A stretch of DNA of 64,000 nt from Sinomicrobium weinanense (lineage in GTDB: Bacteria > Bacteroidota > Bacteroidia > Flavobacteriales > Flavobacteriaceae), in assembly GCF_018863395.1 (NCBI RefSeq), contig NZ_JAHKRR010000001.1, positions 372,001 to 436,000 on the forward strand, in the 5' to 3' direction. Made by a program: the position numbers and the translations under genes. The notes beneath the pieces are model-generated. The model saw only the letters and a program-made list of their open reading frames with translations, had not been told where the DNA came from and searched no databases. This document shows positions 146 to 62,829 of this stretch, piece by piece. Position 1 is the stretch's first letter. The number at the start of each line of letters is the position of its first letter.

Positions 146-194
146 TTTCAGGTTTCAGGTTTCAGGTTTCAGGTTTCAGGTTTCAGGTTTCAGG
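146..194. repeat. TTTCAGG heptamer, seven perfect tandem copies
   Basis: Seven uninterrupted copies of TTTCAGG fill 146-194, in the 141-nt gap between the GIN fragment and the beta-helix gene. Directly after, 229-260 holds a second degenerate word array (ctgtctcac / cttctcac). Perfect seven-unit identity suggests copy number could vary by slippage. The position inside a presumed operon would place it in the transcript leader of the GIN gene. Confidence 0.85.
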
Positions 195-259
195 ACTGTT
201 TTTTGTTGCTCTCCATCATCTCATCCCACCACTGTCTCACTGTCTCACCTTCTCACTGT

Positions 260-1363
260 CTATTTTTTATACAAGGTTATCCCCCCGTATTCAGAGGTTA
301 TAGATAGCTTATTCCCGGGTGAACTCCCGTAATGTCCTTTATAGTATTTCTCCGAGCTCTTCACCCTTTTTATTTCGTATTCAAAATCGGTATCGCCCTT
401 TAAACCTGTGTATTCGAGTACGATCTCGAAGTTAAAATGATAGTTACTGTTATATCCTATTTTTATGCCGGTGAATTCTGTCTCTAAGGTTACATTCCCG
501 GCATCTGCTGCCAATTCCTCTATTTTAATGGAGCCGTAGTCCGAAGTTATGTTCACATCGCCGTGTACCGTGCCGAATTTGGTGGAGAGATAATCGCCTG
601 TGCCGTGTACGTTTTTGGCGCTTTCTACGGAAAGGTCACCGTAGTCGCAGGAATATTCCAGGGCACCAATTTCAAGGATACTGGACGAAGTATAGTCGGC
701 ATTCAGAGACAGTTTCTCCGCTTTTTCGAGAACGAAGCCGGAATAGTCGGCATTTATGCTTCCGCTTTTCATGTAGCTGATAGATGATTTGGAAGTATAG
801 TCAAAAGAGAGCTCGTTGCCGTCGGCACGCAGTTCGCCTATCTCCAGCTTTCCGTAATCACAGCTTATTTTTGCTTTGCCGTTTATCTCGTCTATCTGGA
901 TGCCTCCGTAATCATTGCTGAGGTCCACACTGTTGTTTACCGGGAGTTTAATGGTGTAGTTGATCTCCATGCTCATATTGTTATTGCCTCCCCAGCTCCA
1001 CTTCTTGTTTCCGAAAATGGTCCGGGCGGCAACCCTGCTTTTGCCCGCCTCGAAATCCACATCGATCTGGTCGAGCTTTTGCTGTACTTTGCCTTCATTG
1101 TTACCATTGACTTTTATGAGCACATCGATTTCTATCCTGTTTTCGTTCCAGGAGGTGATGTAGATGTTCCCGTAAGAGTTGTTTACTTCCAAAAGTGCAT
1201 TGGAGTTTACGTTAAATGACTTTTTTATCCTTTTCTCCTTACTGTGTTTGCCGTTCCATTTCGGGTCCTGGTCCCCGGAAAGGGCAGAAGCCGTTGTAAG
1301 CAATGGAAATAATACAGCCAGTAGTAATACGATCTTATAGCCTGTTCGCTTCATGGTCATCAT
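260..1363 (-). CDS. Secreted beta-helix-like protein with repeated D-Y-G turns (DUF4097-like)
   Basis: A 367-residue exported protein. Residues 1-28 form a signal peptide (YKIVLLLAVLFPLLTTASA). The rest is rich in short beta strands with a repeating signature: DYGGIQI, DYGKLEI, DYTSKSS, DYSGFVL, DYTSSSI, DYGDLSV, DYLSTKF, DYGSIKI, EYGGITL, spaced roughly 20 residues apart. This pattern fits a right-handed parallel beta-helix of the DUF4097/adhesin-like class. ATG codons at 1363, 1360 and 1354 are all possible starts; each overlaps the end of the upstream anti-sigma-like gene (stop at 1335), so translation is probably coupled. It is the likely cell-envelope output or sensor of the ECF operon, but its function is unknown. 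Confidence 0.75.
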   Translation of the reverse strand: MMTMKRTGYKIVLLLAVLFPLLTTASALSGDQDPKWNGKHSKEKRIKKSFNVNSNALLEVNNSYGNIYITSWNENRIEIDVLIKVNGNNEGKVQQKLDQIDVDFEAGKSRVAARTIFGNKKWSWGGNNNMSMEINYTIKLPVNNSVDLSNDYGGIQIDEINGKAKISCDYGKLEIGELRADGNELSFDYTSKSSISYMKSGSINADYSGFVLEKAEKLSLNADYTSSSILEIGALEYSCDYGDLSVESAKNVHGTGDYLSTKFGTVHGDVNITSDYGSIKIEELAADAGNVTLETEFTGIKIGYNSNYHFNFEIVLEYTGLKGDTDFEYEIKRVKSSEKYYKGHYGSSPGNKLSITSEYGGITLYKK

Positions 1364-1937
1364 TTTTTAATCGTTTCATATTTTCTATTTGCTCCATTAC
1401 ACTCTGTAACAGGGCGACCCTGGTCTGGAAGTTGGTGATCATCGCGTTGAGCAATTGTTTGCTGTATCCGTTCTTCTGCAATTCTGCTTCCAGTTTTTCA
1501 TAATCTTTTTCTATGAGGTTCAATTGTTCAACGGCATCGTCAACAATAATCCTGGTGTCTTCGGTGGTGGCTTCTTCCCGGATATTTTTTAGTTCTGTTT
1601 CGATCAGGGAAGCAAAGTAGTACCGGGTTTTTTCCAGTTCTGGATAAGCAACTTCTTCTTCGGCCTCAACGGGTATGGAAGACTGTGGTTGTGTGTTGTA
1701 AAAGACCCAGCCAAGACCTAACAGCAGTACTATGGAAGCGGCAACGGAAAGCTGCCTCCACCGGAGACGGGAAGATCTTTTTTTCTGCGGATCTTTCTGC
1801 CGTTCGGCCGCCACTTCGGCTTTGCTCAGTACGAGTTTTTCCAGGAAGCGGTTTTCATGGCCTGCTGCGGGAGATTCCGTGTCAAATTCTCCCTGTAACC
1901 GTTCAAATAAGTTGTCTATGTTATCCTTTTTCATCAT
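1335..1937 (-). CDS. Anti-sigma-factor-like single-pass membrane protein
   Basis: A 200-residue protein with a cytoplasmic N-terminus (about 1-60, including GHENRFLEKL, a motif style common in Bacteroidota sigma partners), one transmembrane helix at about 62-80 (LSVAASIVLLLGLGWVF), and a charged, mostly helical periplasmic C-terminus predicted to form coiled coil (about 95-190). It starts 63 nt after the ECF sigma gene (2001-2561) and its 3' end overlaps the next gene by up to 29 nt. Topology and location argue for a membrane-bound regulator of that sigma factor. No zinc-binding HxxxCxxC motif is visible, so it is not a classic ZAS anti-sigma factor. The functional call is inference from context. 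Confidence 0.6.
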   Translation of the reverse strand: MMKKDNIDNLFERLQGEFDTESPAAGHENRFLEKLVLSKAEVAAERQKDPQKKRSSRLRWRQLSVAASIVLLLGLGWVFYNTQPQSSIPVEAEEEVAYPELEKTRYYFASLIETELKNIREEATTEDTRIIVDDAVEQLNLIEKDYEKLEAELQKNGYSKQLLNAMITNFQTRVALLQSVMEQIENMKRLKNDDHEANRL

Positions 1938-2000
1938 CAGAAATTAAACATTTGAAAAGGAAAAATGATTCCTGTTTGTTTTTTATCGTCCGTCTGTCAG

Positions 2001-2561: not shown

Positions 2562-2675
2562 AAAGTAGTTGTTTTCGTTATAAGGATGAACAAGAATGGA
2601 ATTTGTTACAGTTTAAGGAATTTTTTTTAAAAAATGATGTTTTTTGGTTAAAGGGCTGTTCCCAGTTTCCAGTTG

Positions 2676-2733
2676 CGGGTTGCCAGTTGCCGGTTTTGGT
2701 CCCTGAGCAGAGCCGAAGGGCGGGTTGCCAGTT
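2676..2733. repeat. Degenerate GTTGCCAGTT word repeat in the 2562-3023 gap
   Basis: The gap 2562-3023 has no gene. It contains two copies of the 13-mer CGGGTTGCCAGTT (2676-2688 and 2721-2733) in a run of related words (cagtttccagttgcggg, gttgccggtt), separated by ccctgagcagagccgaaggg, itself a weak inverted repeat. The same vocabulary recurs at 37986-38037 and 49222-49305. A -7 box (TATATTTG, 2884-2891) lies 133 nt before the NTF2-like gene, but no TTG box at the expected spacing was found. Confidence 0.7.
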
Positions 2734-3023
2734 TTCCAGGTTCTTGTCTTCCGGCTGTGGCCTTGATTTTCGAAGAAAACAATAAAAATCTGCGCCTATC
2801 TGCGAGATCTGCGGGCTGTCCTTTTAAATTTAACCATTGCTTTGCCCATTTTTTTATCCATTACCCACACCATATCAATTGTGTATATTTGTTTCTAAGC
2901 CATAAGTTAAAAAAAACAAAATTATTAAAGTGAAAAACAAAATATCCATTTGCTGATGGATACTGACCTTTGCATCTAAAGAAAACCCGACGGCACAACC
3001 ATTAATTTATTAACTCACCTGAA

Positions 3024-3401: not shown

Positions 3402-3502
3402 AGCAGGAAAATCTGGTAACAATATCCGGGAAAGAGGTATAGTTGCGGTAACAACAGCATTTTTAACGGAAGATACCACCCATATTTTACTTAAAGGTAT
3501 TT

Positions 3503-3730: not shown

Positions 3731-3741
3731 TAAGGAAGCTT

Positions 3742-4068: not shown

Positions 4069-4071
4069 AGC

Positions 4072-4391: not shown

Positions 4392-4469
4392 AAGTACGAA
4401 GTTAGAAGTACGAAATTAGAAGTAAATATAACTTCAGACCCTATACTTCGTATTTCCAACTTCGTACTT
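4392..4469. repeat. Inverted repeat of the GAAGTACGAAGT family inside the iron operon
   Basis: Left arm 4392-4416 and right arm 4445-4469 (25 nt each) are complementary at 22 of 25 positions, with a 28-nt loop. Both arms are built from the word AAGTACGAAGT or a close variant. The element lies between the DUF3649-like and PepSY genes, all on the + strand, so the RNA would fold into a long hairpin 20 nt before the PepSY start codon. The same word occurs at 27324-27362 and 47012-47051. Confidence 0.85.
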
Positions 4470-4489
4470 CAGGAACAATATCAAATCTT

Positions 4490-14548: not shown

Positions 14549-14603
14549 AGTTTAAAGTTCAAAGTTGCAGGTTTAGGAACAAGCAACCACCCAAACCTGC
14601 AAC
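14549..14603. repeat. Dispersed 25-mer with GTTGCAGGTTT inverted repeat
   Basis: The 25 nt at 14549-14573 recur exactly at 55935-55959. The last 11 bases, GTTGCAGGTTT (14564-14574), are inverted at 14593-14603 (AAACCTGCAAC), giving a hairpin with an 18-nt loop. It fills the gap between the ABC exporter and the phosphosugar mutase, both leftward, so it would be in a shared transcript. Confidence 0.85.
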
Positions 14604-14610
14604 ATGTAAC

Positions 14611-17488: not shown

Positions 17489-17605
17489 CTAAAAATCCTG
17501 CCTTTGATTAAGTATACGTAATACAAGGACTTCTTCACTTTGAATAAGGTAGTGTCTGGAATAATGGAACTTATCCAAAGTGACAAGTTTTCCAATCTTT
17601 TCCAT
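17489..17605 (-). pseudogene. Remnant of a RelE/ParE-type toxin C-terminus
   Basis: A 38-codon open frame on the - strand, ATG at 17605, stop at 17489. It encodes MEKIGKLVTLDKF, HYSRHYLI, then QSEEVLVLRILNQRQDF. The latter half matches the layout of the last two strands of ParE/RelE toxins (a Y-R/H-x-Y-x-I strand followed by V-x-V-L-R-I-x-N/H-x-R-x-D). The N-terminal two-thirds of such a toxin and any antitoxin gene are absent; the frame instead begins where a 14-bp tandem repeat (17606-17647) ends. Most likely a decayed toxin-antitoxin locus. Short length limits certainty. Confidence 0.4.
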
Positions 17606-17647
17606 AGAATATATACTTTAGAATATATACTTTAGAATATATACTTT
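17606..17647. repeat. 14-bp tandem repeat, three perfect copies
   Basis: AGAATATATACTTT is repeated exactly three times (17606-17619, 17620-17633, 17634-17647) with a partial tail. It sits between the DUF4199 gene stop (17667) and the toxin remnant (17605). AT-rich; may mark a deletion junction. Confidence 0.9.
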
Positions 17648-18690: not shown

Positions 18691-19866
18691 ATGAACTATA
18701 TTCTTATTGACGGCCCTGTTCGTAATGCGCTGTTGCCTTTTACTTTTACGAGGCCCGTTGCGGATATCCGTGTAGGGATACTGACCGTCCGGGAGAAATG
18801 GGAAAAACTGCTGGAAGAAAGAACATCGACCCTTACGGAAGATTATCTGTCTGTTAAATTTCCTCTGGTGGAAGCCCGGGAAAACATCCTTATCGATGCC
18901 TCCTTTTTACCCACTGCGGAATTAGTGGCCATGGTGAAAGGCCTGCAACCCGGGGAAGCAGTATTTCAGGGAGAACAACTTATTGCGTTTTACAGCACCG
19001 AAGCCCGACAGGAAACAGATCTTTCCGCTTTCGAAAGAAAGGAATACGACGGAGATCTGATACGTATCGAAAACAGCTGGGACATCTTCTCCCGGAACCG
19101 GGAAGCCCTCCAGGCCGATTTTGAACTCCTTACCAAAGGCAGGAAAAGCGAGCCTATACCGGAAGGTATACAGGTCATTGCCCCTGAAAACATATTTATA
19201 GAAGAAGGAGCCCGGCTCTATTTTTCCACCCTGAACGCTGCTGATGGTCCTATCTATATCGGCAGGAACACCCTGGTCATGGAAGGCTGTCATATCCGGG
19301 GAGGCTTTGCGCTTTGTGAGGGAAGTATTGTAAAGATGGGCGCCAAAATATACGGGGCCACGACCGTAGGCCCCAATTGTAAGGTTGGCGGGGAAATAAA
19401 CAACTCCGTTCTGTTCTCTTATTCCAATAAGGGCCACGAAGGCTTTCTGGGAAATTCCGTGCTCGGGGAGTGGTGCAATATCGGGGCGGATACGAACAAC
19501 TCCAATATGAAGAACAATTATGACGAGGTGAAACTGTGGAGCTATGAAACGGAGCGATTCAAAAAAACAGGATTGCAGTTTTGCGGACTTATGATGGGCG
19601 ACCACAGTAAGTGCGGTATTAATACGATGTTCAATACCGGAACGGTCATAGGGGTGAATACGAATATCTACGGAAGCGGACTGCCCCGGAATTTCGTTCC
19701 TGATTTTTCCTGGGGAGGGGCCAGCGGTTTTACCATCTATACGTTGCCCAAGGCCGTTGCGTCCGCCCAAAGGGCCGCAGTGCGGAGAAATGTGGAATTT
19801 ACGGATGTGGATGCCGGAATTCTGGAAAAGGTCTTTGAGCTGACAAAAAAATGGCGAAAAGAGTAG
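18691..19866 (+). CDS. GlmU-like sugar nucleotidyltransferase/acyltransferase fold protein
   Basis: A 391-residue protein of the putative sugar nucleotidyltransferase family with a GlmU-like layout. The N-terminal half (1-180) is a degenerate nucleotidyltransferase domain (NALLPFTFTRPVADIRVGIL). The C-terminal half (about 190-350) is a left-handed beta-helix with hexapeptide turns (IFIEEGARLYFSTLNAADGP, GAKIYGATTVGPNCKVGGEI, WCNIGADTNNSNMKNNY). Conserved across Bacteroidota near the S9 peptidase or L31 genes. It may act on UDP-sugar precursors; the exact reaction is unproved. Ends just before the word-repeat hairpin at 19877. Confidence 0.85.
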   Translation: MNYILIDGPVRNALLPFTFTRPVADIRVGILTVREKWEKLLEERTSTLTEDYLSVKFPLVEARENILIDASFLPTAELVAMVKGLQPGEAVFQGEQLIAFYSTEARQETDLSAFERKEYDGDLIRIENSWDIFSRNREALQADFELLTKGRKSEPIPEGIQVIAPENIFIEEGARLYFSTLNAADGPIYIGRNTLVMEGCHIRGGFALCEGSIVKMGAKIYGATTVGPNCKVGGEINNSVLFSYSNKGHEGFLGNSVLGEWCNIGADTNNSNMKNNYDEVKLWSYETERFKKTGLQFCGLMMGDHSKCGINTMFNTGTVIGVNTNIYGSGLPRNFVPDFSWGGASGFTIYTLPKAVASAQRAAVRRNVEFTDVDAGILEKVFELTKKWRKE

Positions 19867-19876
19867 ATGTGAGAGG

Positions 19877-19962
19877 GTGAGAAAGTGAGAAGGTGAGAGG
19901 GTAGTAATAAGTCAATTAGTTAATTTTCAAATTCTCACCCTCTCACCTTCTCACTTTCTCAC
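19877..19962. repeat. 26-bp perfect inverted repeat of GTGAGAAGGTGAG words between convergent genes
   Basis: Arms 19877-19902 and 19937-19962 are exact reverse complements over 26 bp with a 34-nt loop. Each arm is a chain of GTGAGA-type words of 8-9 nt. It lies between the convergent GlmU-like and S9 peptidase genes, and the peptidase stop codon (19959-19961) lies inside the right arm. It probably serves as a terminator in both directions, though there is no T run. Confidence 0.92.
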
Positions 19963-22325
19963 TTTCCTTCCAGGGTGGTGTTGAACAGTTTCAGGATACG
20001 TTTGTATTCATCCGTCCAGCTACTGGGCTCTACAAAGCCGTGGTCTTCGGCCGGGTAAACGGCCATCTCCCAATTGTCCTTGCCCAGTTCTATGAGGCGT
20101 TGTGACAACCTTACCACATCCTGGAAATGTACGTTTACATCGACCATGCCGTGGGCAATGAGCAGGTTGCCTTTTAATCCTTCTGCAAAATAAATAGGGG
20201 AGGATCTCCGGTATGCTTTAGGGTCGTTAAAAGGTTCGTTCAGAATGCTGGATGTATACCAGTGATTGTAATGCGCCCAGTCCGTTACCGACCGCAATGC
20301 AGCGCCGGAAGCAAAGGTGTCTCCTTCGTTGAACAGGGCCATCAGGGTGATGAACCCGCCATAACTTCCGCCGTAAATCCCTACTTTATCTTTGTCAATA
20401 CCGTATTCGGCTATCAGGTATTTTGCCCCGTCCACCTGGTCGGAGAGATCTTTTCCTCCCATGTGCCGGTAAATGGCGGTGCGCCAGTCCCTGCCGTAGC
20501 CCGCACTGCCACGGTAGTCGATGTCGAGTACGGTATACCCGAGGTCGGTCAGCAGATTGTGGAACATGTATTCCCGGAAGTAGAGCGACCACCATTTATG
20601 AGCATTCTGCAGGTATCCTGCCCCGTGAACAAAAATTACGGCAGCGTTGTTCTTTACGTTGTCTTCCGGAACATACAGGCGTGCAGGGACGGCTGTACCA
20701 TCGGCCGCAGTAAAGCGAATAAGCTGCGGATCGCGCCAGGGATAGGCCCTGAAAGCCTCCGATTGTCCCGAAGTGAGCTGCGTCTCTTTGGCTCCGGAAG
20801 CGTTCTTTTTCAGGTAGAGTTCCCAGGGTTTATTGCTGTAAGAGTGCCGTATGGCCAGGTATTTTTCATCGGGGGAAAGCGATACTTCATTGTTCCCGGT
20901 CATGGAAGTGAGTTTTTCCATCTTTCCGCCATAGACAGGCATTTTGTAGAAGTGCCGCTCTCCGGGATGGACTTCGGAAGTGGTCAGGTACCAGCTTTTG
21001 CCGTCTTTGGATAGAAAAGGGTTGAATACCTCGAATTTTCCGGAAGTCAGTGCCTTTTTCTTCCCGGTCGTGACATCCAGCAGATAGAGATGCGAATACC
21101 CGGTTTCTTCTGACTGAAAATAAATGTGTTTATTGTCCGGAAGCCAGCCCAGGGTACCTCCGCCCATGGTCCAACCGATCCCGGGGCCTGCGATCCAGGA
21201 TTCGTCGCGCTGGCGGTCCAGGGTTTTCAGGCTGCCGTCCTCAGGATTGAGCAGGGCGATCCACCGGTCCTTGTTGTCTTTGGAACGCAGGTTGACTATG
21301 GCATATTTCCCGTTGTCCGAAAAAGAAACCCCGGAGGCGATGACTTCCCGTTCTTCCGATTTCCATTCCCGGTCGGGATAGTCTTTGACATAATCCGGAA
21401 GGTCCTTAATCCCCGGAAGGCTTCCGGTTGATACCCTATATACGGTGTCTTTTTCGAGATTGTATACCGCTAATTCCCGTTCGGTTGTTTCAATACCCAC
21501 TTTTGCGCGGGTATTCAGATCGGTAGTATAACCCGATGCATCGATATAGTCGGGAACGATCGTTTTTTCGGTATTTTCCCTGGTCATAAGGCTGAAGGTA
21601 GCGTATTTTTCGTTGGGAGAAAGTTGAAGGCCGAGCACCTGTTTTTTGCCGGAATAGAAGGTGAAAGGTTCTTTTTCTTTGGTCATTTCCCGGTAGGTTT
21701 TGCCCTGTTCTTTCTTTTCCTTTCTTTCACGTACAACCCGCAGCAGTTTCAGGTTGTCTTTTTGCAGCCATTTGCTCTTGGCGGAGCCTTCCTTTTCCTC
21801 ATCGGTAGCCGGGGCACCACTTTTTATCCGGGTGAGCTGCCTGATCTTTCCGGAAGCTGTGGAATAAGTAAAAAGATCGCTTCCGGACCGAAAGGCTATC
21901 AGGTTTTCATCGGCCAGGAATTTCGGGGATTCCAATGGGTTTCCGGTTTGCAACAGTTCAGTTTTCTTCCGTTTTTTCAGGTCGTAAAGGAACAGTGTGT
22001 TGTCTTTAATGTATACTTTTTTGGTCTTTGACTTGTTGTATTCCCCGTTTTGGGGGATCATGGCCGTTTTTTCTTTTGCAGAGACTTTTTCAATGGTCTT
22101 CGGAGCCTTGATCCGGATGCGGTAAAGCGAATCTGACGGATCGCCGTCCCGGTTGTATTTGAAATAGATGGTTTCCCCGTGCTCGCCCCATCTTATATCA
22201 GAAGGAAAAGTGCCCATCCACTGCGGGTCCTGCATGATCTTTTCGACAGAGAGGTCACTCGTTTGGGCGTTGATGGAAGAGGAGAGGGAGGCTAAAAGGA
22301 ATAACAGGGTAATTTTTCGTAACAT
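19959..22325 (-). CDS. S9-family prolyl oligopeptidase/dipeptidyl-peptidase, secreted
   Basis: A 788-residue exported serine peptidase. ATG at 22325 was chosen because it starts a signal peptide (LRKITLLFLLASLSSSINAQ); the frame stays open upstream but that extension lies in a repeat. Residues about 30-520 are a beta-propeller with WD40/PD40-like blades (SPDEKYLAIRHSYSNKPWEL). The C-terminal alpha/beta hydrolase has nucleophile GGSYGG (Ser654), Asp729 (GMVDVNV) and His762 (EDHGF). It cleaves short peptides in the periplasm, probably Pro- or Ala-specific as in DPP IV/acylaminoacyl-peptidase relatives. Its last codons overlap an inverted repeat. Confidence 0.93.
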   Translation of the reverse strand: MLRKITLLFLLASLSSSINAQTSDLSVEKIMQDPQWMGTFPSDIRWGEHGETIYFKYNRDGDPSDSLYRIRIKAPKTIEKVSAKEKTAMIPQNGEYNKSKTKKVYIKDNTLFLYDLKKRKKTELLQTGNPLESPKFLADENLIAFRSGSDLFTYSTASGKIRQLTRIKSGAPATDEEKEGSAKSKWLQKDNLKLLRVVRERKEKKEQGKTYREMTKEKEPFTFYSGKKQVLGLQLSPNEKYATFSLMTRENTEKTIVPDYIDASGYTTDLNTRAKVGIETTERELAVYNLEKDTVYRVSTGSLPGIKDLPDYVKDYPDREWKSEEREVIASGVSFSDNGKYAIVNLRSKDNKDRWIALLNPEDGSLKTLDRQRDESWIAGPGIGWTMGGGTLGWLPDNKHIYFQSEETGYSHLYLLDVTTGKKKALTSGKFEVFNPFLSKDGKSWYLTTSEVHPGERHFYKMPVYGGKMEKLTSMTGNNEVSLSPDEKYLAIRHSYSNKPWELYLKKNASGAKETQLTSGQSEAFRAYPWRDPQLIRFTAADGTAVPARLYVPEDNVKNNAAVIFVHGAGYLQNAHKWWSLYFREYMFHNLLTDLGYTVLDIDYRGSAGYGRDWRTAIYRHMGGKDLSDQVDGAKYLIAEYGIDKDKVGIYGGSYGGFITLMALFNEGDTFASGAALRSVTDWAHYNHWYTSSILNEPFNDPKAYRRSSPIYFAEGLKGNLLIAHGMVDVNVHFQDVVRLSQRLIELGKDNWEMAVYPAEDHGFVEPSSWTDEYKRILKLFNTTLEGK

Positions 22326-22376
22326 GATAAACTGGTTTTGATCACAGCTTACGAAGCTACGTAATTTTTTAAAAAA

Positions 22377-22477
22377 AGATTGTTGGGAGATTGAATGAGA
22401 TTGATGGAAGATTGATGGAATGTGTAGAAGGAGAAATTTAAAAAATGTTTCAATCTTCATCAATCTCCCAACAATCT
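22377..22477. repeat. Inverted repeat of AGATTGATGG words in the divergent gap
   Basis: AGATTGTTGGGAGATTGA (22377-22394) is exactly inverted at 22460-22477 (18 bp), with more imperfect pairing further in (gattgatggaagattgatgg against caatcttcatcaatc). It fills the space between the S9 peptidase and MtaB genes, which diverge. A -7-like box TACCTTTG (22540-22547) lies between it and mtaB. Confidence 0.9.
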
Positions 22478-22623
22478 CTCCGTAAAGGACTAAGTGTAAA
22501 ATTTAAACAAACTCTTAATTCTGTTCTAAATACTTTAAGTACCTTTGCACTCCCGGAATAAATATAAGAGTCTCATCCCGAAGTCTTTGGAAGAGGCTCT
22601 CAAAATTTACAACAAGCAGGCAA

Positions 22624-26112: not shown

Positions 26113-26202
26113 GAGTTTGGTGGTCGGTATTCAGTGATCGGTATTCGGTAATTGATGTGTGTTATTTATTGTAATTTATGGAGATTTGTAGAAATTTATA
26201 TT

Positions 26203-26252
26203 ATCAATCTCCATCAATCTCCATCAATCTCCATCAATCTCCATCAACTTCC
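26203..26252. repeat. ATCAATCTCC tandem decamer and associated words
   Basis: Four perfect 10-bp copies (26203-26242) and one degenerate copy (26243-26252) of ATCAATCTCC. Flanking sequence has related words on the other strand sense (tggagatttg at about 26178) and ggtattcagtgatcggtattcggtaa at about 26125, so the whole 26113-26270 gap is word-repeat DNA. The CAATCTCC word is shared with the arms at 22377-22477. No gene is seen here. Confidence 0.88.
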
Positions 26253-26384
26253 GGCAACCGACCATTCTCCGTTTCATAAGATGGAATTTTTTACCTTTAC
26301 CACATGTTTTTGCCATGTGCAGGTGGTAAGATCATATGATTTTAGGAAAATTAACGTTAAAGATTAGAAATAAAGAAGAGAGTT

Positions 26385-27344
26385 ATGGAATGGATGAAAA
26401 AGGGGCTCATGGCCATAGGAGTTATTGCACTGGCAGGTTTTTTTCTGAATTCGGTGCAGGGAGTGGGACAGGATACCGAAAATGCGGGAAGTGGCCCGGA
26501 AACAACAAATAACAAGGCGGTTAATGATTATAACATATATGCGATCGATTTCCTTGAAAAACTGGACTTTGCCGGCGAATCTGTTCCGTTGGACGAGCCG
26601 GATATCAGGGAACGAATGGACCGGGAGCTCCTGGTCAATACTTACTGGCAGTCCAATGGTTTGTTGCTGATAAAACGGGCGCACAAGTATTTTCCGGTCA
26701 TAGAGCCTATCCTGGCCAAACACGGGGTGCCTGACGATTTTAAGTACCTCGCCGTGATAGAGAGCGGCCTGCAAAACGTGGTATCACCTGCCCGGGCAAC
26801 AGGGTTCTGGCAGATCATGAGCTCCACGGGAAAAGAATACGGATTGGAAGTCAATCAGAATGTGGACGAACGCTATCACCTGGAAAAATCTACCGAAGTA
26901 GCCTGTGAATACCTCAAAAAGGCCAAGGCGCGATTCGGAAGCTGGACGATGGCCGCTGCTGCCTACAATGCCGGCCAGGCGGGAATGGCCAGGCAGCAGA
27001 CCAGGCAAAAGGAAAAAGATTACTACGATATTCTGCTGGGAGAAGAGACAGGAAGATATATTTTCCGCATACTTGCAGTGAAGGAGATCCTGTCCGATCC
27101 GTATAAATACGGTTTTAATATCGAGAAAAAACATATGTATACCATGGTGCCGACCAAAAAGATAAAGGTCGACTATGAGATCGATGACCTGACAGATTTT
27201 GCCAGGGAACACGGTATTAACTACAAAATACTGAAAATCCACAATCCCTGGCTCCGGGAAACCAAACTAAACAACAAATCGAGGAAGAAATATTTTATCG
27301 AGATCCCTGAAAAAGGATATTATGAAGTACGAAGTGTTAAATAA
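26385..27344 (+). CDS. Lytic transglycosylase (SLT domain), MltD-like
   Basis: A 319-residue peptidoglycan lytic transglycosylase. A signal or anchor helix at about 5-22 (KGLMAIGVIALAGFFLN) exports it. The SLT domain spans about 105-245: catalytic Glu126 in AVIESGLQN, then SPARATGFWQIMSSTGKEYG, and AAAAYNAGQAGM, the family's three blocks. It cleaves glycan between MurNAc and GlcNAc with a 1,6-anhydro product. The C-terminal 60 residues (DFAREHGINYKILKIHNPWL) resemble the MltD tail where LysM would be, but no clear LysM is present. The last six residues are encoded inside a repeat hairpin. Confidence 0.9.
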   Translation: MEWMKKGLMAIGVIALAGFFLNSVQGVGQDTENAGSGPETTNNKAVNDYNIYAIDFLEKLDFAGESVPLDEPDIRERMDRELLVNTYWQSNGLLLIKRAHKYFPVIEPILAKHGVPDDFKYLAVIESGLQNVVSPARATGFWQIMSSTGKEYGLEVNQNVDERYHLEKSTEVACEYLKKAKARFGSWTMAAAAYNAGQAGMARQQTRQKEKDYYDILLGEETGRYIFRILAVKEILSDPYKYGFNIEKKHMYTMVPTKKIKVDYEIDDLTDFAREHGINYKILKIHNPWLRETKLNNKSRKKYFIEIPEKGYYEVRSVK

Positions 27345-27362
27345 CTTCGAGCCTCGTACTTC
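27324..27362. repeat. GAAGTACGAAGT inverted repeat overlapping a stop codon
   Basis: GAAGTACGA (27324-27332) pairs with TCGTACTTC (27354-27362), and inside it CGAAGT/ACTTCG can pair as a second stem. The left arm is the end of the lytic transglycosylase gene (stop at 27342-27344), so its last residues are read from the repeat. The convergent TPR gene ends at 27371. Same word family as 4392-4469 and 47012-47051. Confidence 0.85.
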
Positions 27363-27886: not shown

Positions 27887-28001
27887 GTTGTGGTTTTTAA
27901 TGTTGAGTGCACCTGGGTGAACAAGAATGCAAAGTTAAAAAAAACTGACGGAGCACGTATCGTCCGGGGGAAAATTCCTTGGTTTAGCCGGTATTCAGTA
28001 T

Positions 28002-28236
28002 TCGGTATTCGGTGTTTGATGATCGGTGTGTGACTGGTAGGATCAATAGTTATTGTTCTATCAATCTTCGTTGGTATCTATGGGATTACCAATCTTCTGT
28101 GTGGTATATTAAACGTAGCGGGGCAAATCCTGTATCTTTACTGATGTATGGAATAAAAACTCTTTATTTCAATAATCCAGTTACAATCAATTTCAAATAA
28201 AAACCAACATATCGATCATCAAACACCGAATACCGA
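28002..28236. repeat. 24-bp perfect inverted repeats flanking 187 bp (MITE-like element)
   Basis: Left arm 28002-28025 and right arm 28213-28236 are exact reverse complements over 24 bp, built from the word TTCGGTATTCGG followed by tgtttgatgatc. The 187 bp between have no convincing gene. The left arm is preceded by one more degenerate word (gtattcag, 27991). Length, terminal inverted repeats and lack of coding content resemble a miniature inverted-repeat element, but no target-site duplication was confirmed. It occupies most of the 483-nt gap before rpmH. Confidence 0.8.
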
Positions 28237-28265
28237 CCACCGATTAAAATATTTTTTCAAATGGT

Positions 28266-34634: not shown

Positions 34635-34660
34635 AGCGATAAAATAATCTTGATCATAAT

Positions 34661-34694
34661 AACACCGCCCGGTGAATTCCGGGCGGTGTTTTTT
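34661..34694 (+). terminator. Strong terminator after the coiled-coil gene
   Basis: A 12-bp perfect GC-rich stem (AACACCGCCCGG 34661-34672, CCGGGCGGTGTT 34679-34690) with loop TGAATT and a T run. Confidence 0.95.
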
Positions 34695-35971: not shown

Positions 35972-35996
35972 ATGATCTGTTTTTTGTAAGCGTTGA

Positions 35997-36077
35997 GACG
36001 CACGGCCGTACCCTGAAATCGGGATTATCTCGTTTGAGACGCACAGTCTTGCACGTTGAGGCGCACGACCGTGCGTC
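35997..36077. repeat. GACGCACGGCCGT inverted repeat upstream of hutI
   Basis: GACGCACGGCCGT (35997-36009) pairs with ACGACCGTGCGTC (36065-36077), 12 of 13 positions. Between them are two more relatives (gagacgcacagtc, gaggcgcac). Same family as the element at 58044-58100. It lies between fumC and hutI, both leftward, and includes a frame open to hutI that is probably not translated. Confidence 0.88.
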
Positions 36078-36103
36078 TTTACGTTCATATCTTTTAATGA
36101 TCT

Positions 36104-37501: not shown

Positions 37502-37606
37502 GATGTTTGTTAAGATTTTTAGACTGCTTACAAAATTAGCATTTTGCCGTGTAATAAGCCGGTGATTTTCGGATTTTTATCACAGGTATACGAGTATGCG
37601 GGTGGT

Positions 37607-37649
37607 CGGGTGTTCGAGTTGTTGACCTTACTACATACCTGAACACCCG
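37607..37649. repeat. CGGGTGTTC inverted repeat in the fumC upstream gap
   Basis: CGGGTGTTC (37607-37615) is inverted at 37641-37649 (GAACACCCG), in a run of related words (gcgggtggtcggg, aacccgaacactggc). The 37502-37755 gap holds this element and no other gene. Confidence 0.65.
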
Positions 37650-37755
37650 CAAACCCGAACACTGGCAAACACACTTCATATTTTAGTACCGAAAAGGCTT
37701 GGGATTTCAATTAAAAACGGTATTTTTGTGGGGAATTCGAAAATTTCCGGAAATT

Positions 37756-37932: not shown

Positions 37933-37944
37933 AAAACGCATGAA

Positions 37945-37974
37945 AAAAAGGCTCCGAAAACGGGGCCTTTTTTT
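37945..37974 (+). terminator. Terminator after the small membrane protein
   Basis: AAAAAGGCTCCG (37945-37956) pairs with CGGGGCCTTTTT (37961-37972) with one G-U pair and an AAAA loop, followed by TT. Confidence 0.9.
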
Positions 37975-37985: not shown

Positions 37986-38037
37986 GCCGGTTACCTGTTT
38001 ACCGGTTAAAACTGGCAACCCGAAACTGGCAACCGGC
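37986..38037. repeat. GTTGCCAGTT-family inverted repeat
   Basis: GCCGGTTACCTGTTT (37986-38000) pairs with AAACTGGCAACCGGC (38023-38037) at 13 of 15 positions. Located between the small membrane protein's terminator and the convergent M14 peptidase gene. Same vocabulary as 2676-2733 and 49242-49305. Confidence 0.85.
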
Positions 38038-38048
38038 AACAACAACCT

Positions 38049-42154: not shown

Positions 42155-42178
42155 GGGGGCGCAATGCATTGCGCCCCC
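42155..42178. repeat. 24-bp perfect palindrome with GGCGCAATGC core
   Basis: Positions 42155-42178 are a perfect palindrome: GGGGGCGCAATG followed directly by its reverse complement. A degenerate second copy (gtggggatccaatacattg) follows at about 42193-42212. The same GGCGCAATGC core recurs at 47053-47070. It lies in the 282-nt gap between the convergent efflux and uvrA genes. Confidence 0.92.
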
Positions 42179-46976: not shown

Positions 46977-47011
46977 TTTTACATACTTTTGGTCGACTAA
47001 AATATGTAAAA

Positions 47012-47070
47012 AAGTATGAAGTACGAAGTATAAAGTACAAAGTACAAAGTAGAGGCGCAATGCCTTGCGT
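47012..47070. repeat. AAGTAYR heptamer array joined to a GGCGCAATGC palindrome
   Basis: Five full heptamers and one partial (AAGTATG, AAGTACG, AAGTATA, AAGTACA twice, AAGTA) span 47012-47051, followed at once by gaggcgcaatgccttgcg. This links the AAGTACGAAGT vocabulary (4392, 27324) to the GGCGCAATGC palindrome (42155). A second word array (aaatctaacgtctaacatctaaaatct) follows at about 47125-47152. All lie between the divergent nth and bcp genes. Confidence 0.88.
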
Positions 47071-47162
47071 TTGAAGTCTGATCCCCCGGCCCGGATCGGG
47101 AACCGGAGATCATAATCTGACATCTCAAATCTAACGTCTAACATCTAAAATCTATACAAATA

Positions 47163-49241: not shown

Positions 49242-49305
49242 GTTGCCAGTTACCGGTTGCAAGTTGATCGGTTGAGTATATAACAGGGAACTCGCAACTG
49301 GCAAC
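49242..49305. repeat. GTTGCCAGTT-family inverted repeat
   Basis: GTTGCCAGTT (49242-49251) is inverted at 49296-49305 (AACTGGCAAC) within a longer run of related words (gggttgccgggg, taccggttgcaagttgatcggttg, ctcgcaactggcaaccgacagtctgaactg; 49218-49320). It lies between DUF2182 and the ABC-F gene, both rightward. Confidence 0.82.
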
Positions 49306-55922: not shown

Positions 55923-55934
55923 TTTTGGATTGAA

Positions 55935-55959
55935 AGTTTAAAGTTCAAAGTTGCAGGTT
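55935..55959. repeat. Second copy of the 14549-14573 25-mer
   Basis: Exactly identical over 25 nt to 14549-14573, lying in the 35-nt gap between lgt and galT and ending inside the lgt stop codon (55958-55960). Unlike the first copy it has no inverted partner close by, though ggtccccgagcggagctgaggggg follows at about 55981. Confidence 0.9.
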
Positions 55960-58043: not shown

Positions 58044-58100
58044 CCCCGTAAAGACGCACGGCCTCCGAAAGGACGGGGCAGGCTTTGCGTCTTTACGGGG
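58044..58100. repeat. CCCCGTAAAGACGC inverted repeat between the symporter gene and galK
   Basis: CCCCGTAAAGACGC (58044-58057) is exactly inverted at 58087-58100 (14 bp), with a 29-nt loop that itself is related (acggcctccgaaagg). Same 'GTAAAGACGCACGG' family as 35997-36077. Located in the leftward transcript before the galK start at 58019. Confidence 0.92.
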
Positions 58101-59684: not shown

Positions 59685-59956
59685 AAAGGTTAAAATTGAT
59701 CTTGCACAAAAAAAGATAGACTTTAACACCGGTAGAAACAATAGTTGGTCAAAGCTATCTGAAAATGCTAATTGCCGCCTAAAAGTACAGATTTTTTTTA
59801 TTTGCGAAAGAATGTTGTGCAGAATATAACGAAATTGTTAAAAAACTGACACGATATGATGATGGGGGAGGTGAGAGGGTGAGATTTGTATGTTTTGTTT
59901 GAAATTAAAAGTGACAGCTAATGTGTTATCAATAAATCAGGATTTTAATTTGTGGA

Positions 59957-61144
59957 TTAGGAAATTTTGTTGTCGTCAAAAGCGGATGGGAGTAGTTGGG
60001 GGATGAATTTTACGAGAAGGGGGAGCAAAATACCTCCGCCCGGCAGTAAAAAAATGGCCAGCGAGGGTACGGATTTACAGATATCGAGCAGTTGTGTTTT
60101 TACTTTTTGTTTTTCTTCCCGGGTCAGTTCTTTTACAGTAGACTTGGAAAGTAGCACTACCAGTTCCTTGCTTTGAGAGAGTTCCTGCTGCAACCGTTTT
60201 TTGTTGCGCAGGATAAGGTTGCTGACCATTTTGGACGAGTTGTCGTAAAAGTGCTTTACGGGGTTGGAAAAATTAAGAATGGGGATATCTTCCCGGTGCT
60301 CCCTGAAAAAATCACGGACAAAGACTATGGAATTTTTTATTTCCTGAGGTTCCAGGGAAAGGGTATTGCCCAGGTCTAACACAAATTGTTGTTCTTCGTC
60401 ATGGATGGTCTCGTCATTCCATATGGTAAGGCATGCGAGGTCGATAATATATTTTTTTTCCAGTGCGGACGTAAAGGAAAGTGCTTTTTGAGGCGGGAAA
60501 AGGGGCACCTGTTTGTCAAACGAACCGGTATATCTTGCCGACGCTTCGAAGAGGCGCACCAGTTGGGTGTCGTATTCGTTCTTTTCGGGTTTGGCCTCCA
60601 GGGCACGGTACATGGTAGTGATAACAAAGGTCTCCAGTTTTTTGGCATAAGCTATACAGGAAGTATTACCTTCCAGGAATTTTATATAGGTAAGCACATC
60701 TATATAGAGTAGTGCGTTGGTAAGTATGCGGTTAAAATTCTTGGTGAGGATGTTTTCGTCGAACTGTATGCGGTTGCCTATGATCTTTTCGAGCTTGGAG
60801 GCCGGTTTTTTACCGGATAAGAGCTTATCGAAAAAAGAAACATTATTGCTTTCTATTTCAGTGTAGAAAGCAATGATGGATGTTATGGCTTTTTCGTGAA
60901 CGAGTTTTCCATGGTGTGTGTAATAAGCCGTTAGAAGTGAAATGTACAAATGGGTCTTGGACAATTCTTCTTCAGTCAGCTTATTCTCGATATGCAGGGG
61001 CAGGGCCAGTTTTACATTGATGCCATAAATGAACCCCGAAGCCTTTAGTTTGTCGTACAGGCTTGTATTTTTAATGGGAAATACAGTGGACTCCCCCAAA
61101 ATAGTGTTCAATTTACCTATCCAGCCGGCAGCCGAAGGATTCAT
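59957..61144 (-). CDS. LETM1-related protein
   Basis: A 395-residue protein of the bacterial LETM1-related group, whose C-terminus (LSQSKELVVLLSKSTVKEL, CKSVPSLAIFLLPGGGILLP, LLVKFIPQLLPSAFDD) matches the mitochondrial LETM1 ribosome-binding/membrane motif. The N-terminal 280 residues are alpha-helical with no known fold. The single hydrophobic stretch at about 360-383 may sit in or near the inner membrane. LETM1 in mitochondria affects K+/H+ exchange; bacterial members are linked to biofilms by annotation only. The preceding gap 59685-59956 contains a stray gtgagagggtgaga word at 59871. Confidence 0.78.
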   Translation of the reverse strand: MNPSAAGWIGKLNTILGESTVFPIKNTSLYDKLKASGFIYGINVKLALPLHIENKLTEEELSKTHLYISLLTAYYTHHGKLVHEKAITSIIAFYTEIESNNVSFFDKLLSGKKPASKLEKIIGNRIQFDENILTKNFNRILTNALLYIDVLTYIKFLEGNTSCIAYAKKLETFVITTMYRALEAKPEKNEYDTQLVRLFEASARYTGSFDKQVPLFPPQKALSFTSALEKKYIIDLACLTIWNDETIHDEEQQFVLDLGNTLSLEPQEIKNSIVFVRDFFREHREDIPILNFSNPVKHFYDNSSKMVSNLILRNKKRLQQELSQSKELVVLLSKSTVKELTREEKQKVKTQLLDICKSVPSLAIFLLPGGGILLPLLVKFIPQLLPSAFDDNKIS

Positions 61145-61219
61145 AATAGTATAACGGATTATATGAAAGTTTTGAAAAGTATATGAACCGGCGCCAGGGG
61201 GATTTGATGTTCGGTGTTC

Positions 61220-61276
61220 AGTAATCGGTAAACAGCATTTGATGTAGTACTAACTGAATACCGAATACCGATTACT
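61220..61276. repeat. TTCGGTATTCGG-family inverted repeat
   Basis: AGTAATCGGTA (61220-61230) is inverted at 61266-61276 (TACCGATTACT), set among gttcggtgttcag and gaataccgaatacc words (61208-61276). It shares its vocabulary with 28002-28236 and the region near 26125. Lies between the LETM1-like and SOD genes, both leftward. Confidence 0.82.
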
Positions 61277-61311
61277 AAAGTGCCTGTCCGGGCTTGTCTT
61301 CTTACTGAGGG

Positions 61312-61896
61312 TTATTGTATAACACCTCCACAGCTTACTCTTGAACCTGCATCCCCTGTTGGTTGGGTAACGAAGTCATCGGGGGCCTGGTGAACGATCA
61401 CTCCTTTTCCGATGATGTTTTTGGTCTCGTCATCACAGTCTATACACCATTCGTCCGTAGAAAAAGTGATAGATCCGTTACCTTCTTCGTCTGCGGTAAA
61501 GTTTCCGATATCACCTTTGTGGTATCCTTCGGAATCCCCCCATTTACCGTGTTTTTGAAATGTTGGATTCCAATGTCCGCCGGTAGAAGTACCGTCGGGA
61601 GCGGAACAGTCGGCTTTTTCATGCAGGTGTATGGCGTGCTCTCCGGGCTCCAGGCCTTCGAAAGTGGCAGTCATGGTCACGGTGCCGTCTTCTTCCTTGA
61701 ACACGGCCATACCTTTTACATTGGATTCACTTTTGGGCTCCATTTGAACTGTAAGCTCTTTTGCTGGTTCGGCCTGTACTTCCGTAGTAGGAGCAGGTTC
61801 TTCTTCCGTTATGGTTTCTTTTTCCTTTTTTGTCGTGTTTTTACAGGAAACAGACAAAAGCAGTACGGATAGTGTGAATAACGATATTTTTTTCAT
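61312..61896 (-). CDS. sodC: Cu/Zn superoxide dismutase, lipoprotein
   Basis: A 194-residue periplasm-facing SOD. Lipobox LLSVSC with Cys18, then an acidic linker (EEEPAPTTEVQAEPAKEL). The SOD domain has copper/zinc ligands HLHEKADC, GGHWNPT, the zinc loop HKGDIGNFTA and IGKGVIVHQAPDD, and the disulfide pair (DC...SCGG). It dismutates superoxide at the envelope. Apparently monocistronic. Its own copper need makes the DUF1326-DUF2182 pair worth comparing, though 12 kb away. Confidence 0.94.
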   Translation of the reverse strand: MKKISLFTLSVLLLSVSCKNTTKKEKETITEEEPAPTTEVQAEPAKELTVQMEPKSESNVKGMAVFKEEDGTVTMTATFEGLEPGEHAIHLHEKADCSAPDGTSTGGHWNPTFQKHGKWGDSEGYHKGDIGNFTADEEGNGSITFSTDEWCIDCDDETKNIIGKGVIVHQAPDDFVTQPTGDAGSRVSCGGVIQ

Positions 61897-61977
61897 GGTG
61901 AAATATATTTTTAGGGTTTAAAGTTAGTCAGCTTCATCTTGCTGACCAAATTTATATATGGTTTTGTGAGGAGGGAA

Positions 61978-62730
61978 TTAATTTATGGACACGATCTCGG
62001 TATCGCCGATAATGATGCCTTTGCGTACTTCCGGGGTCCCCTTATATTTTACCGTAGCCTCCCCGTAAGAGGTTACTTTGAGCCTTTCGGAAACCTGGCA
62101 CTGAAAATCACTGTCGCCATAGGCTACGATCCTTGTGTCTTTGTTGTTTGCATTCAGGGTATTGATCTCGCTTTCACCGTAGGTGGTGAACTTTTGTTTT
62201 TCCACAGTTCCCTTTTTAATTTCCAGGTGACATTCTCCGTAAACAACGGTCTTCAGGTCGTTAATGTTGGCATCATTGATGTATACTTCAGAATCTCCGT
62301 ATATATTTAAACGCATCCGGTCCATATGTAAAGGGCTTTCAAATACCATGGTCTCTTCTCCTCTCAGGGCAAAAGTATTTGCCTTTTTGTAAGTGACTAC
62401 GGCTTTTACGACAGTACCTTTGTATAAGGGAATTTTTCTTTTTTCGTTTTCCCCCTTGATCTTTTCGGTCTTGGTGACCACCCTGGCCCCGTCGAGGTAC
62501 ATATGAAGGACCTTGTTCTTGACTTCGACATGCAGTTTTTCAAAAGGCTCGGTCATTTCTTCTATCACAACCGATTCTTTGTCTCCTTCCCTGAAAGTTA
62601 CCTGGATATGCGGGTTGATGATAATCTTGTCAAAACTATTCACGGGAATATCCCTGGACTGGGCCTTTACGATTCCAGGCATCAAAAGCACGAGCATTAT
62701 GCCTAAAAAGGCGATGTTGTTTGTTTTCAT
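61978..62730 (-). CDS. Head GIN domain protein (DUF2807)
   Basis: A 250-residue exported protein. Signal peptide 1-23 (IAFLGIMLVLLMPGIVKAQS). Then the GIN motif region SRDIPVNSFDKIIINPHIQV, TFREGDKESVVIEEMTEPFE, KLHVEVKNKVLHMYLDG. The last 120 residues form beta-helix turns with a repeated Y-G-[DE] signature (IYGDSEVYI, VYGECHLEI, TYGESEINT, AYGDSDFQC, SYGEATVKY). Same family as the fragment at 1-118. Function unknown; probably surface- or periplasm-located. Confidence 0.85.
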   Translation of the reverse strand: MKTNNIAFLGIMLVLLMPGIVKAQSRDIPVNSFDKIIINPHIQVTFREGDKESVVIEEMTEPFEKLHVEVKNKVLHMYLDGARVVTKTEKIKGENEKRKIPLYKGTVVKAVVTYKKANTFALRGEETMVFESPLHMDRMRLNIYGDSEVYINDANINDLKTVVYGECHLEIKKGTVEKQKFTTYGESEINTLNANNKDTRIVAYGDSDFQCQVSERLKVTSYGEATVKYKGTPEVRKGIIIGDTEIVSIN

Positions 62731-62801
62731 CTGTTCTTTTTTTATTTGTTAGTTCGACAGGCTCACTATAAATTTTAATAGGTCATGCTTCGACAAGTGA
62801 T

Positions 62802-62829
62802 ATACTGAGTACTTCGATAAACTCAGTAT
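62802..62829. repeat. ACTGAGTACTTCGATAAACTCAGT hairpin within a 'TTCGACA' word region
   Basis: ATACTGAGT (62802-62810) pairs with ACTCAGTAT (62821-62829). Upstream, gttcgacaggctcac (62753-62767) and atgcttcgacaagtga (62784-62799) are related words. The 62731-63116 gap (386 nt) otherwise shows no gene; it lies between the GIN gene and the metallophosphatase gene, both leftward. Confidence 0.75.

What the first reader, a model, noticed from the sequence alone, without database searches (positions are those of the whole stretch)
146..62829. About twenty intergenic hairpins and arrays built from short degenerate words
Seen directly: at least 20 gaps hold inverted repeats or tandem arrays whose arms consist of 7-13-nt words repeated imperfectly. 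Vocabularies recur at distant places: GAAGTACGAAGT (4392, 27324, 47012), TTCGGTATTCGG (26125, 28002, 61220), GTTGCCAGTT (2676, 37986, 49242), GTGAGAAGGTGAG (229, 19877, 59871), GTAAAGACGCACGG (35997, 58044), GGCGCAATGC (42155, 47053). Arms pair over 9-26 bp, often perfectly. This differs from a classical REP family with one consensus: here each element is a 'sentence' of repeated words folded back on itself. They could be relics of replication slippage, RNA processing or termination signals, or a mobile element type.
Basis: partly seen in the sequence, partly recalled or inferred. Interest (0 to 1): 0.7.

Follow-up and report, generated by a model that had tools for sequence, protein, structure and literature searches.

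The report
Polar heptamer-word arrays between genes
The gaps between genes of this flavobacterium hold short DNA words of seven or eight letters repeated imperfectly and often folded back on themselves, resembling repeats known from cyanobacteria, and here they obey a strict and unexplained rule of direction relative to the neighbouring genes.

Summary
(1) Most elements are tandem arrays of degenerate 7-nt (less often 8-, 10- or 14-nt) words. Arrays scoring >=14 occur in 28 of 312 gaps of a 464-kb sample, against 0.05 expected from shuffles. (2) GTAAAGACGCACGG and GGCGCAATGC belong to one-consensus palindromic families. (3) At least two hairpins look like intrinsic terminators (by eye). The word arrays are recent and partly species-specific: T>=12 in 9 of 49 window gaps versus 1 of 131 orthologous gaps in five congeners. 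Two vocabularies occur 21 and 29 times here, and 1 and 0 times in the five congeners. New finding: a polarity rule. Runs with an RGT core read outward from flanking genes (103 of 135; 71 of 99 in other, mostly Flavobacteriaceae, loci). Gaps holding both orientations are RGT-then-ACY in 47 of 48, one mixed, none reversed; in the own genome this holds for every gene configuration, and in at least two gaps although the two sides use different words. Closest known: cyanobacterial STRR heptamer hairpins and TAACTGA repeats. I file it as a new variant of that kind. How words disperse remains unproven.

The parts
145..194 (+). (GTTTCAG)7 array, single arm; octamer CACTGTCT/CTCACCTT run of the other orientation at 230-261
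   Evidence: (score 100)
2658..2733 (+). GTTGCCA/GTTGCCG array, single arm plus one stray word
4392..4470 (.). GAAGTAC/GAAGTTA fold-back (RGT arm 4392-4424, ACY arm 4447-4470)
   Evidence: z -6.4; gap 172 nt vs 115, 77, 208 in G003, G001, G002 without a tandem or hairpin score >=12
14557..14610 (.). CAAAGTT/GCAGGTT fold-back
   Evidence: z -4.4; tandem and hairpin scores under 12
17605..17647 (.). TAGAATATATACTT x3.1, perfect 14-nt array in a gap of 260 nt (94-106 in five congeners)
19869..19966 (.). GTGAGAAG octamer fold-back starting at the stop codon of 18691-19866
   Evidence: z -9.2; no tandem score >=12 at the orthologous gap of four congeners, G001 has an unrelated hairpin of score 12 there
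22376..22478 (.). GAGATTGATGG (10-11 nt) fold-back inside an insertion of about 145 nt (gap 298 nt vs 150-153 in four congeners)
   Evidence: z -5.7
26120..26258 (.). two vocabularies side by side: TCGGTAT (26120-26150) and ATCAATCTCC (26203-26258); weak fold
   Evidence: z -0.95
27324..27362 (.). GAAGTAC fold-back across a convergent gene end; below the score thresholds, read by eye
27989..28028 (+). CGGTATT array, RGT arm of a widely spaced pair
28213..28242 (-). matching ACY arm (ACACCGAATACCGACCACCG), about 185 nt from its partner; gap 746 nt vs 486-591 in five congeners
37586..37670 (.). GGTGGTCGGGTGTTC / GAACACCCGCAAACCCG fold-back
   Evidence: z -3.1
38009..38040 (-). GTTGCCA/GTTGCCG array (ACY strand on +)
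47012..47051 (+). AAAGTAC array, RGT side of a divergent gap
47115..47154 (-). ATCTAAC array on the other side of the same gap: a different word; opposite orientation only by the looser RRT core (GTTAGAT has no RGT)
49242..49305 (.). GTTGCCA fold-back
   Evidence: z -2.2
55930..55952 (+). AAAGTTC array, single arm
61205..61282 (.). TCGGTAT fold-back
   Evidence: z -4.2
35991..36083 (.). different class: GAGACGCACGG REP-like palindrome halves
58044..58100 (.). different class: GTAAAGACGCACGG REP-like stem
42155..42178 (.). different class: GGCGCAATGCATTGCGCC palindrome

Best explanation
These are STRR-like elements: non-coding tandem arrays of degenerate 7-8-nt words that this species has gained recently at hundreds of intergenic sites (number extrapolated from a sample). 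Words are copied from site to site and then grow, shrink and homogenise within a site by slipped-strand replication (both inferred). Orientation is constrained at gene edges (shown). The strand carrying the RGT core reads outward from coding sequences, so a 5' leader receives the G-poor, start-codon-poor ACY strand and a 3' trailer receives the RGT strand. When both sides of a gap use the same word, the result is an intercistronic hairpin; pairing is then mostly a consequence of shared words plus polarity. A translation-level filter on leaders is my preferred reason for the start-edge half of the rule (inferred); it does not by itself explain the stop-edge half.
For: Period 7/14/8 dominance; in the own sample none of these arrays in coding DNA. 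Near-absence at orthologous gaps. Vocabularies at unlinked sites: 21 vs 1 and 29 vs 0 in five congeners, reversed-pattern control 0 in own genome. Word turnover at a fixed site: in the gap before a cobO-like gene, different species carry arrays of different words; in L081 vs L068 every unit of an array differs while number and phase are the same. Arrays hug gene edges: 49 of 126 within 5 nt, 14.0 expected from random placement, maximum 22. Polarity: 103 of 135 runs outward (p 7e-10); within 40 nt of the nearest edge, starts 27 out / 0 in and stops 51 / 8; single-orientation gaps 36 of 42 outward within 40 nt but 11 of 22 farther away; 71 of 99 in the other loci. The ACY strand has 1.3 NTG codons per 100 nt versus 6.0 on the RGT strand. 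Background leaders lean the same way only weakly: RGT/ACY 0.70 upstream of starts, 1.12 downstream of stops (own).
Against: No copying event was caught: the closest congener is about 80% identical in the protein, so insertion ends are clear at one site only. GAAGTAC is not confined to this species: 43 own, 7 in G003 and 12 in G004 above the reversed control, while 1 in G001 and 4 in G002 do not exceed their controls (1 and 7), 0 in G005. Three words may be over-represented because I fetched sites by them. Four gaps whose arms both lie more than 40 nt from genes still read RGT-then-ACY (4 of 4), which an edge filter alone does not predict. G.U versus A.C mismatches on the sense strand are equal (110 vs 106), giving no sign of RNA-level selection on pairing; yet arms of one hairpin are conserved in four Flavobacterium species (26 of 27 and 28 of 31 columns invariant) while pairwise four-fold sites are 59-69% identical. 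In the other loci, 19 of 63 period-7 arrays lie in called coding sequence. Microcystis TAACTGA repeats do not follow the start-codon orientation (6 forward, 8 reverse; PMC4679880, passages).
Confidence: 0.55

Rival explanations
1. Purely local mutation: slippage builds each array in place and template switching at quasi-palindromes makes the inverted arm; no movement, no selection.
For: 7-nt periodicity, which Mrazek is cited as linking to polymerase slippage (PMC4679880, passage); transition share of unit differences unremarkable (324 transitions, 396 transversions); no wobble signal.
Against: The same words at dozens of unlinked sites, nearly confined to one species; unit order not shared between arms, as template switching would give, though the test has little power with few units; polarity kept where the two sides use different words.
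Confidence: 0.15
2. Functional RNA hairpins: intercistronic stems that stabilise, process or couple neighbouring messages, with words free to drift as long as they pair.
For: Arms more conserved than four-fold sites in four Flavobacterium species; strong folds; in the other loci arrays are denser in co-directional than in divergent gaps (4.55 vs 1.07 per 10 kb); this function was suggested for cyanobacterial STRRs (PMC2670836, passages).
Against: T-runs rare (7 of 83); no excess of sense-strand G.U over A.C; in this genome arrays are as dense in divergent as in co-directional gaps (4.94 vs 4.86 per 10 kb); single-arm and mismatched-word gaps.
Confidence: 0.2
3. A transposon-like element (MITE) whose terminal inverted repeats are iterated heptamers bound by a transposase.
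For: Clean insertion of about 145 nt; an armed pair with about 185 nt interior (27989-28242); constant arm polarity as for oriented transposase sites.
Against: No shared interior seen by eye among 26 two-arm copies of two words (the all-against-all BLAST was not array-masked); no target duplication seen by eye; arms with different words in one gap; single-arm gaps common; the three Y1_Tnp genes are flanked by other palindromes.
Confidence: 0.1

Closest known systems
Cyanobacterial STRR (short tandemly repeated repetitive) sequences
   Same: 7-bp units, intergenic, multi-copy, able to form a hairpin, function unknown (PMC2670836, passages)
   Different: Other phylum; here several vocabularies per genome that differ between species, and a polarity rule relative to genes that I did not see described for STRRs in the passages read
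Nostoc/Calothrix tRNA-Leu intron P6b heptamer stems
   Same: Stem built from degenerate seven-nucleotide motifs (TDNGATT or NNTGAGT), with repeated replacement of one motif by the other at a fixed site (PMC4476775, abstract and passages)
   Different: One site inside an intron RNA; here many intergenic sites
TAACTGA direct repeats of Beggiatoaceae, Cyanobacteria and five Bacteroidetes
   Same: Heptamer arrays, mostly intergenic, in BOGUAY and Flexibacter litoralis oriented with the ACY-containing strand forward just upstream of start codons, and one litoralis set reversed just after a stop codon (PMC4679880, passages)
   Different: One fixed word, only one indirect repeat reported in BOGUAY; here many words, often fold-back; Microcystis does not follow the orientation
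REP/BIME palindromes with RAYT transposases (features recalled)
   Same: Intergenic, palindromic, many copies

Membership tests
STRR (cyanobacteria) | tandem, degenerate units of 7 bp | tested here: met
   noncoding arrays by period: 7 in 25, 14 in 21, 8 in 9 (rows of different period can overlap); shuffled 0
STRR (cyanobacteria) | dispersed, mostly intergenic, multi-copy | tested here: met
   0 coding arrays of period 7/8/14 in own sample; in the other loci 19 of 63 period-7 arrays fall in called coding sequence
STRR (cyanobacteria) | can fold into a hairpin | tested here: met
   7 of 8 folded window elements z below -2; 26 of 40 fetched sites have RGT and ACY runs
STRR (cyanobacteria) | shared words with cyanobacterial STRRs or common descent | tested here: inconclusive
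   learned core RRTTNTN resembles TDNGATT when rotated, but with 35 distinct word clusters the fit only slightly exceeds the best of 30 permutations (79.7 vs 79.3); no cyanobacterial genome was searched
REP/BIME with RAYT | one consensus palindrome | tested here: not met
   35 distinct word clusters among 100 noncoding arrays pooled from the own sample and 80 other loci
REP/BIME with RAYT | elements flank the RAYT gene | tested here: not met
   three Y1_Tnp loci carry other repeats, read by eye
MITE | conserved ends and interior, target site duplication | tested here: not met
   interiors of 26 two-arm copies differ, read by eye; no convincing duplication at the one clean insertion, by eye
Intrinsic terminator | stem followed by T-run | tested here: not met
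   7 of 83 array-type (hand count of the printed list) vs 44 of 181 other co-directional hairpins have >=5 T in the next 8 nt (classification of array-type is loose)
TAACTGA repeats | the word TAACTGA | not tested
   not searched genome-wide; not the main word of any array listed
Telomerase-like or other reverse-transcriptase templated repeats | reverse transcriptase in the genome | tested here: not met
   no RVT_1 match in own genome at E 0.001; 3 of 14 control genomes ring

The most novel reading that the evidence does not exclude
The polarity is the signature of outgrowth from DNA 3' ends. Broken intergenic DNA is trimmed back to gene edges, each 3' end is extended with RGT-core heptamers taken from a largely species-specific pool of words, and the two ends are joined, giving RGT outward on both sides with any filler between: the layout of two fused telomeres, made in a bacterium in which no reverse transcriptase of the RVT_1 family was found.
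Probability: 0.1. Interest if true: 0.88.

Novelty: new variant of a known kind. Interest (0 to 1): 0.55.

Why it matters
Heptamer repeats have long been known in cyanobacteria (recalled) and their function is still described as unknown in the one paper I read passages of. A genome in which they are young, numerous and obey a simple directional law makes their origin testable: sister strains or passaged cultures should show words arriving, and orientation-swapped reporters can separate selection at gene edges from a directional DNA process. It also warns that intergenic hairpins in such genomes should not be read as terminators or REPs by default.

Tried and rejected
Rejected: REP/RAYT (flanks of three Y1_Tnp genes); Rfam families (0 gathering matches in the window); reverse-transcriptase templating; terminators; RNA-level selection seen as G.U excess (110 vs 106); template-switch copying of arms judged by unit order (12 hairpins, none significant, low power); transition bias of unit variants (324 vs 396). 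The RGT core is strong over all 100 pooled arrays (score 247.7 vs null max 208.1) but only just exceeds the null on 35 distinct word clusters (79.7 vs max 79.3, 30 nulls), so the core itself is a modest claim. Orientation by the learned profile agreed with orientation by RGT in 59 of 71 arrays and gave a weaker but concordant polarity (p 0.003 vs 7e-6). No named genus: the one genome-contig scan may leave the genome and its near kin out; the family is inferred from its hits.

Limits and dropped rows: genes were called with a home-made periodic Markov model. One search used 126 arrays, of which 100 could be oriented and 99 had a nearer side. One search used 20 of the 30 loci (the others overlap the window or each other); 6 runs inside called genes and 33 without a gene on one side were dropped; dinucleotide shuffles of the 464 kb gave 12 runs at all positions against 82 real intergenic ones. 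In one search, 48 runs inside genes were dropped and shuffles gave 38 runs at all positions, so part of the 99 there may be chance, which would dilute the polarity. The printed output was cut. The 80 loci are mostly Flavobacteriaceae by record title; a few MAG titles say otherwise.
Full report
What was checked. Genes were called with a home-made periodic Markov model trained on 464 kb of the own genome: the window plus 20 stretches of 20 kb. The genome is 5.36 Mb in 30 contigs; the window is C1:372001-436000. Hits of an ABC-F protein place it near Flavobacteriaceae; the genus is not named by any tool.

Is it more than chance? Yes. Of 312 gaps of at least 15 nt, 28 reach tandem score 14 (mean of 20 dinucleotide shuffles 0.05) and 28 reach hairpin score 14 (0.15); 15 reach 12 on both (0). 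Scanning all positions, noncoding arrays at score 13 or more fall on period 7 (25), 14 (21) and 8 (9), with 7 at other periods (10, 15, 16, 20) and one coding array (period 9); rows of different period can overlap; shuffled noncoding DNA gave none. Density in the 400 kb outside the window is 8.0 per 100 kb (32 arrays), which extrapolates to roughly 430 per genome; the window itself has 20.3 per 100 kb.

It is not one thing. GAGACGCACGG / GTAAAGACGCACGG belongs to a palindromic family with one consensus: AGACGCACGGCCGTGCGTCT, up to 2 mismatches, 34 places in the own genome, 42 in G003, 14 in G004, 1 in G005, 4 in G025, and 0 in the other 35 of the 40 genomes searched, own included. GCGCAATGCATTGCGC, up to 1 mismatch, has 14 places here and none in five congeners. 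Two hairpins (34658-34693, 37943-37974) look like intrinsic terminators. The remaining majority are degenerate word arrays such as GTTGCCA, TCGGTAT, GAAGTAC, GAAGTCC, CAAAGTT, TTAGATG, AAATCGT and the octamers GTGAGAAG and GGAGTTTT.

Age and spread. The window is syntenic with five congeners. Tandem score 12 or more occurs in 9 of 49 window gaps, against 0 of 46 (G003), 0 of 32 (G001), 1 of 24 (G002), 0 of 16 (G004) and 0 of 13 (G005) orthologous gaps. The window was chosen because of its arrays, so the fairer comparison is density: 8.0 per 100 kb in the own sample versus 2.5, 0, 1.7, 0 and 0 in the congener stretches, two of which are only 20 kb. The gap 22326-22623 is 298 nt here and 150-153 nt in four congeners; the alignment shows a clean insertion of about 145 nt without an obvious target duplication. 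Vocabularies are partly species-specific. GTTGCCAGTTGCCAGTT (1 mismatch): 21 own, 1 in G003, 1 in G025, 0 in the other 37 of 40 genomes. CGGTATTCGGTATTCGG: 29 own, 1 in G016, 0 in the other 38 of 40. Reversed controls gave 0 in the own genome, and 1 in G016. GAAGTAC (2 mismatches): 43 own with control 0, 7 in G003 (control 0), 12 in G004 (2), 4 in G002 (7), 1 in G001 (1), 0 in G005, so it is shared with G003 and G004 and not above control in the others. Independent local slippage does not predict the same new word at dozens of unlinked sites in one species; some form of copying between sites is inferred.

Beyond this species. In the 80 loci (1.49 Mb, mostly Flavobacteriaceae by title) the same scan gave 63 arrays of period 7, 27 of 14 and 21 of 8; there 19 of 63 period-7 arrays fall in called coding sequence, unlike the own genome. 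Twenty stretches from other genera (399 kb) gave 8 of period 7 or 14, against 1 array of any period in shuffles; 50 kb of E. coli K-12 gave none of period 7 or 8. At one orthologous gap, before a cobO-like gene (52 loci shown, not all with arrays), species carry different words: TTTTAGA hairpins, CTTAGAAC octamers, CAATGAA, ACCGACT, TCTAAAA. In L081 versus L068 an array at the same place has the same number and phase of units but every unit changed. In four Flavobacterium species the TTTTAGA hairpin keeps 26 of 27 and 28 of 31 arm columns invariant, while pairwise four-fold sites of the neighbouring gene are 59-69% identical; this one hairpin looks constrained.

The polarity rule. Orienting each array by an RGT core, arrays in the left half of a gap read RGT on the plus strand (34 of 50) and in the right half ACY (38 of 49), p 7e-6. 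A dedicated count of RGT runs in the own genome (window, 20 stretches, and sites fetched by three words, duplicates removed) found 103 of 135 runs reading outward from the nearer gene; the rule holds in all four gene configurations (31 of 43, 32 of 41, 20 of 25, 20 of 26). Gaps with both orientations are RGT-then-ACY in 32 of 33, one mixed, none reversed. In the 80 other loci the figures are 71 of 99 and 15 of 15; 29 loci are mostly outward, 7 mostly inward, 7 tied. Among 40 sites of 601 b fetched by two words, 26 have runs of both kinds, all in the same order. In at least two called gaps the sides carry different words (L222 = gap in L024; L235 = gap in L044; L228 and L233 probably), and in window gap 46977-47162 AAAGTAC faces ATCTAAC, whose orientation is defined only by a looser RRT core; so pairing is not what sets the polarity. 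In single-orientation gaps the rule holds near gene edges (36 of 42 within 40 nt) and fades beyond (11 of 22), which points to an edge-anchored cause; against that, the four gaps with both arms more than 40 nt from genes keep the order (4 of 4). Arrays also lie close to gene edges more often than random placement gives (49 of 126 within 5 nt versus 14.0).

Mechanism. Near starts the ratio is 27 outward to 0, near stops 51 to 8. The ACY strand has few NTG codons (1.3 versus 6.0 per 100 nt) and little G, and Flavobacterium initiation is tuned by leader structure and upstream bases (PMC6847099, abstract and passages), so a filter on leaders is plausible for the start edge. Ordinary leaders and trailers lean the same way only slightly (RGT/ACY 0.70 and 1.12 in the own genome, 0.67 and 0.97 in the other loci). 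The stop-edge half needs another reason; outgrowth from 3' ends would explain both with one step and is kept as the novel reading. Arms do not share unit order, sense-strand G.U and A.C mismatches are equal (110 vs 106), and T-runs are rare, so neither template-switch copying nor terminator function is supported.

Known relatives. Cyanobacterial STRRs are 7-bp repeats that can form hairpins, function unknown (PMC2670836, passages). The Nostoc trnL P6b stem is built from TDNGATT or NNTGAGT with repeated replacement of one by the other (PMC4476775, abstract and passages). [quoted passage not shown] litoralis mostly sit forward just before start codons, with one litoralis set reversed after a stop; Microcystis differs (PMC4679880, passages). 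My nine library searches listed no paper whose title or abstract start describes this for Flavobacteriaceae beyond TAACTGA; only the top of each list was shown, and most subscription papers are not in that library. Verdict: new variant of a known kind.

Noticed in passing
L081, L068, L079, L090, L106 (inside a methyltransferase-like gene before a stretch that reads LIYFDGNH by eye): Heptamer arrays also sit inside a coding sequence at one loop, with different words in different species (e.g. GACAACC, AACCTGA, AACAAAC), suggesting a permissive protein loop invaded or re-worded repeatedly.
   Followed up: partly
L161, L162, L163: Three Y1_Tnp (RAYT-like) genes of the own genome are flanked by their own short palindromes (CCCGAAGGGATGACATTAT-like, CATAGGGCGTTGCCCTATG-like), unrelated to the word arrays.
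   Followed up: yes
window 35991-36083, 58044-58100; 42155-42178: Two REP-like palindrome families: AGACGCACGGCCGTGCGTCT (shared with three congeners and G025) and GCGCAATGCATTGCGC (14 near-copies, only in this species among six).
   Followed up: partly
L050 9700-13300: Several gaps beside a gene that reads like ribosomal protein S11 (by eye) carry arrays with different words (AAATCGT, TTGAACC, TTAAGTA).
   Followed up: no
L168 12721-12895 (G003): A long near-perfect octamer pair GTTTAGGA x9 / CAACTTAC x9 in a congener: different words on the two sides, in the RGT-then-ACY order.
   Followed up: no
window 62788-62843: CTTCGACAAG... / ...CTCAGTATGGTATTTACCGAAG stem, resembling another widespread one-consensus repeat (recalled, not tested).
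   Followed up: no
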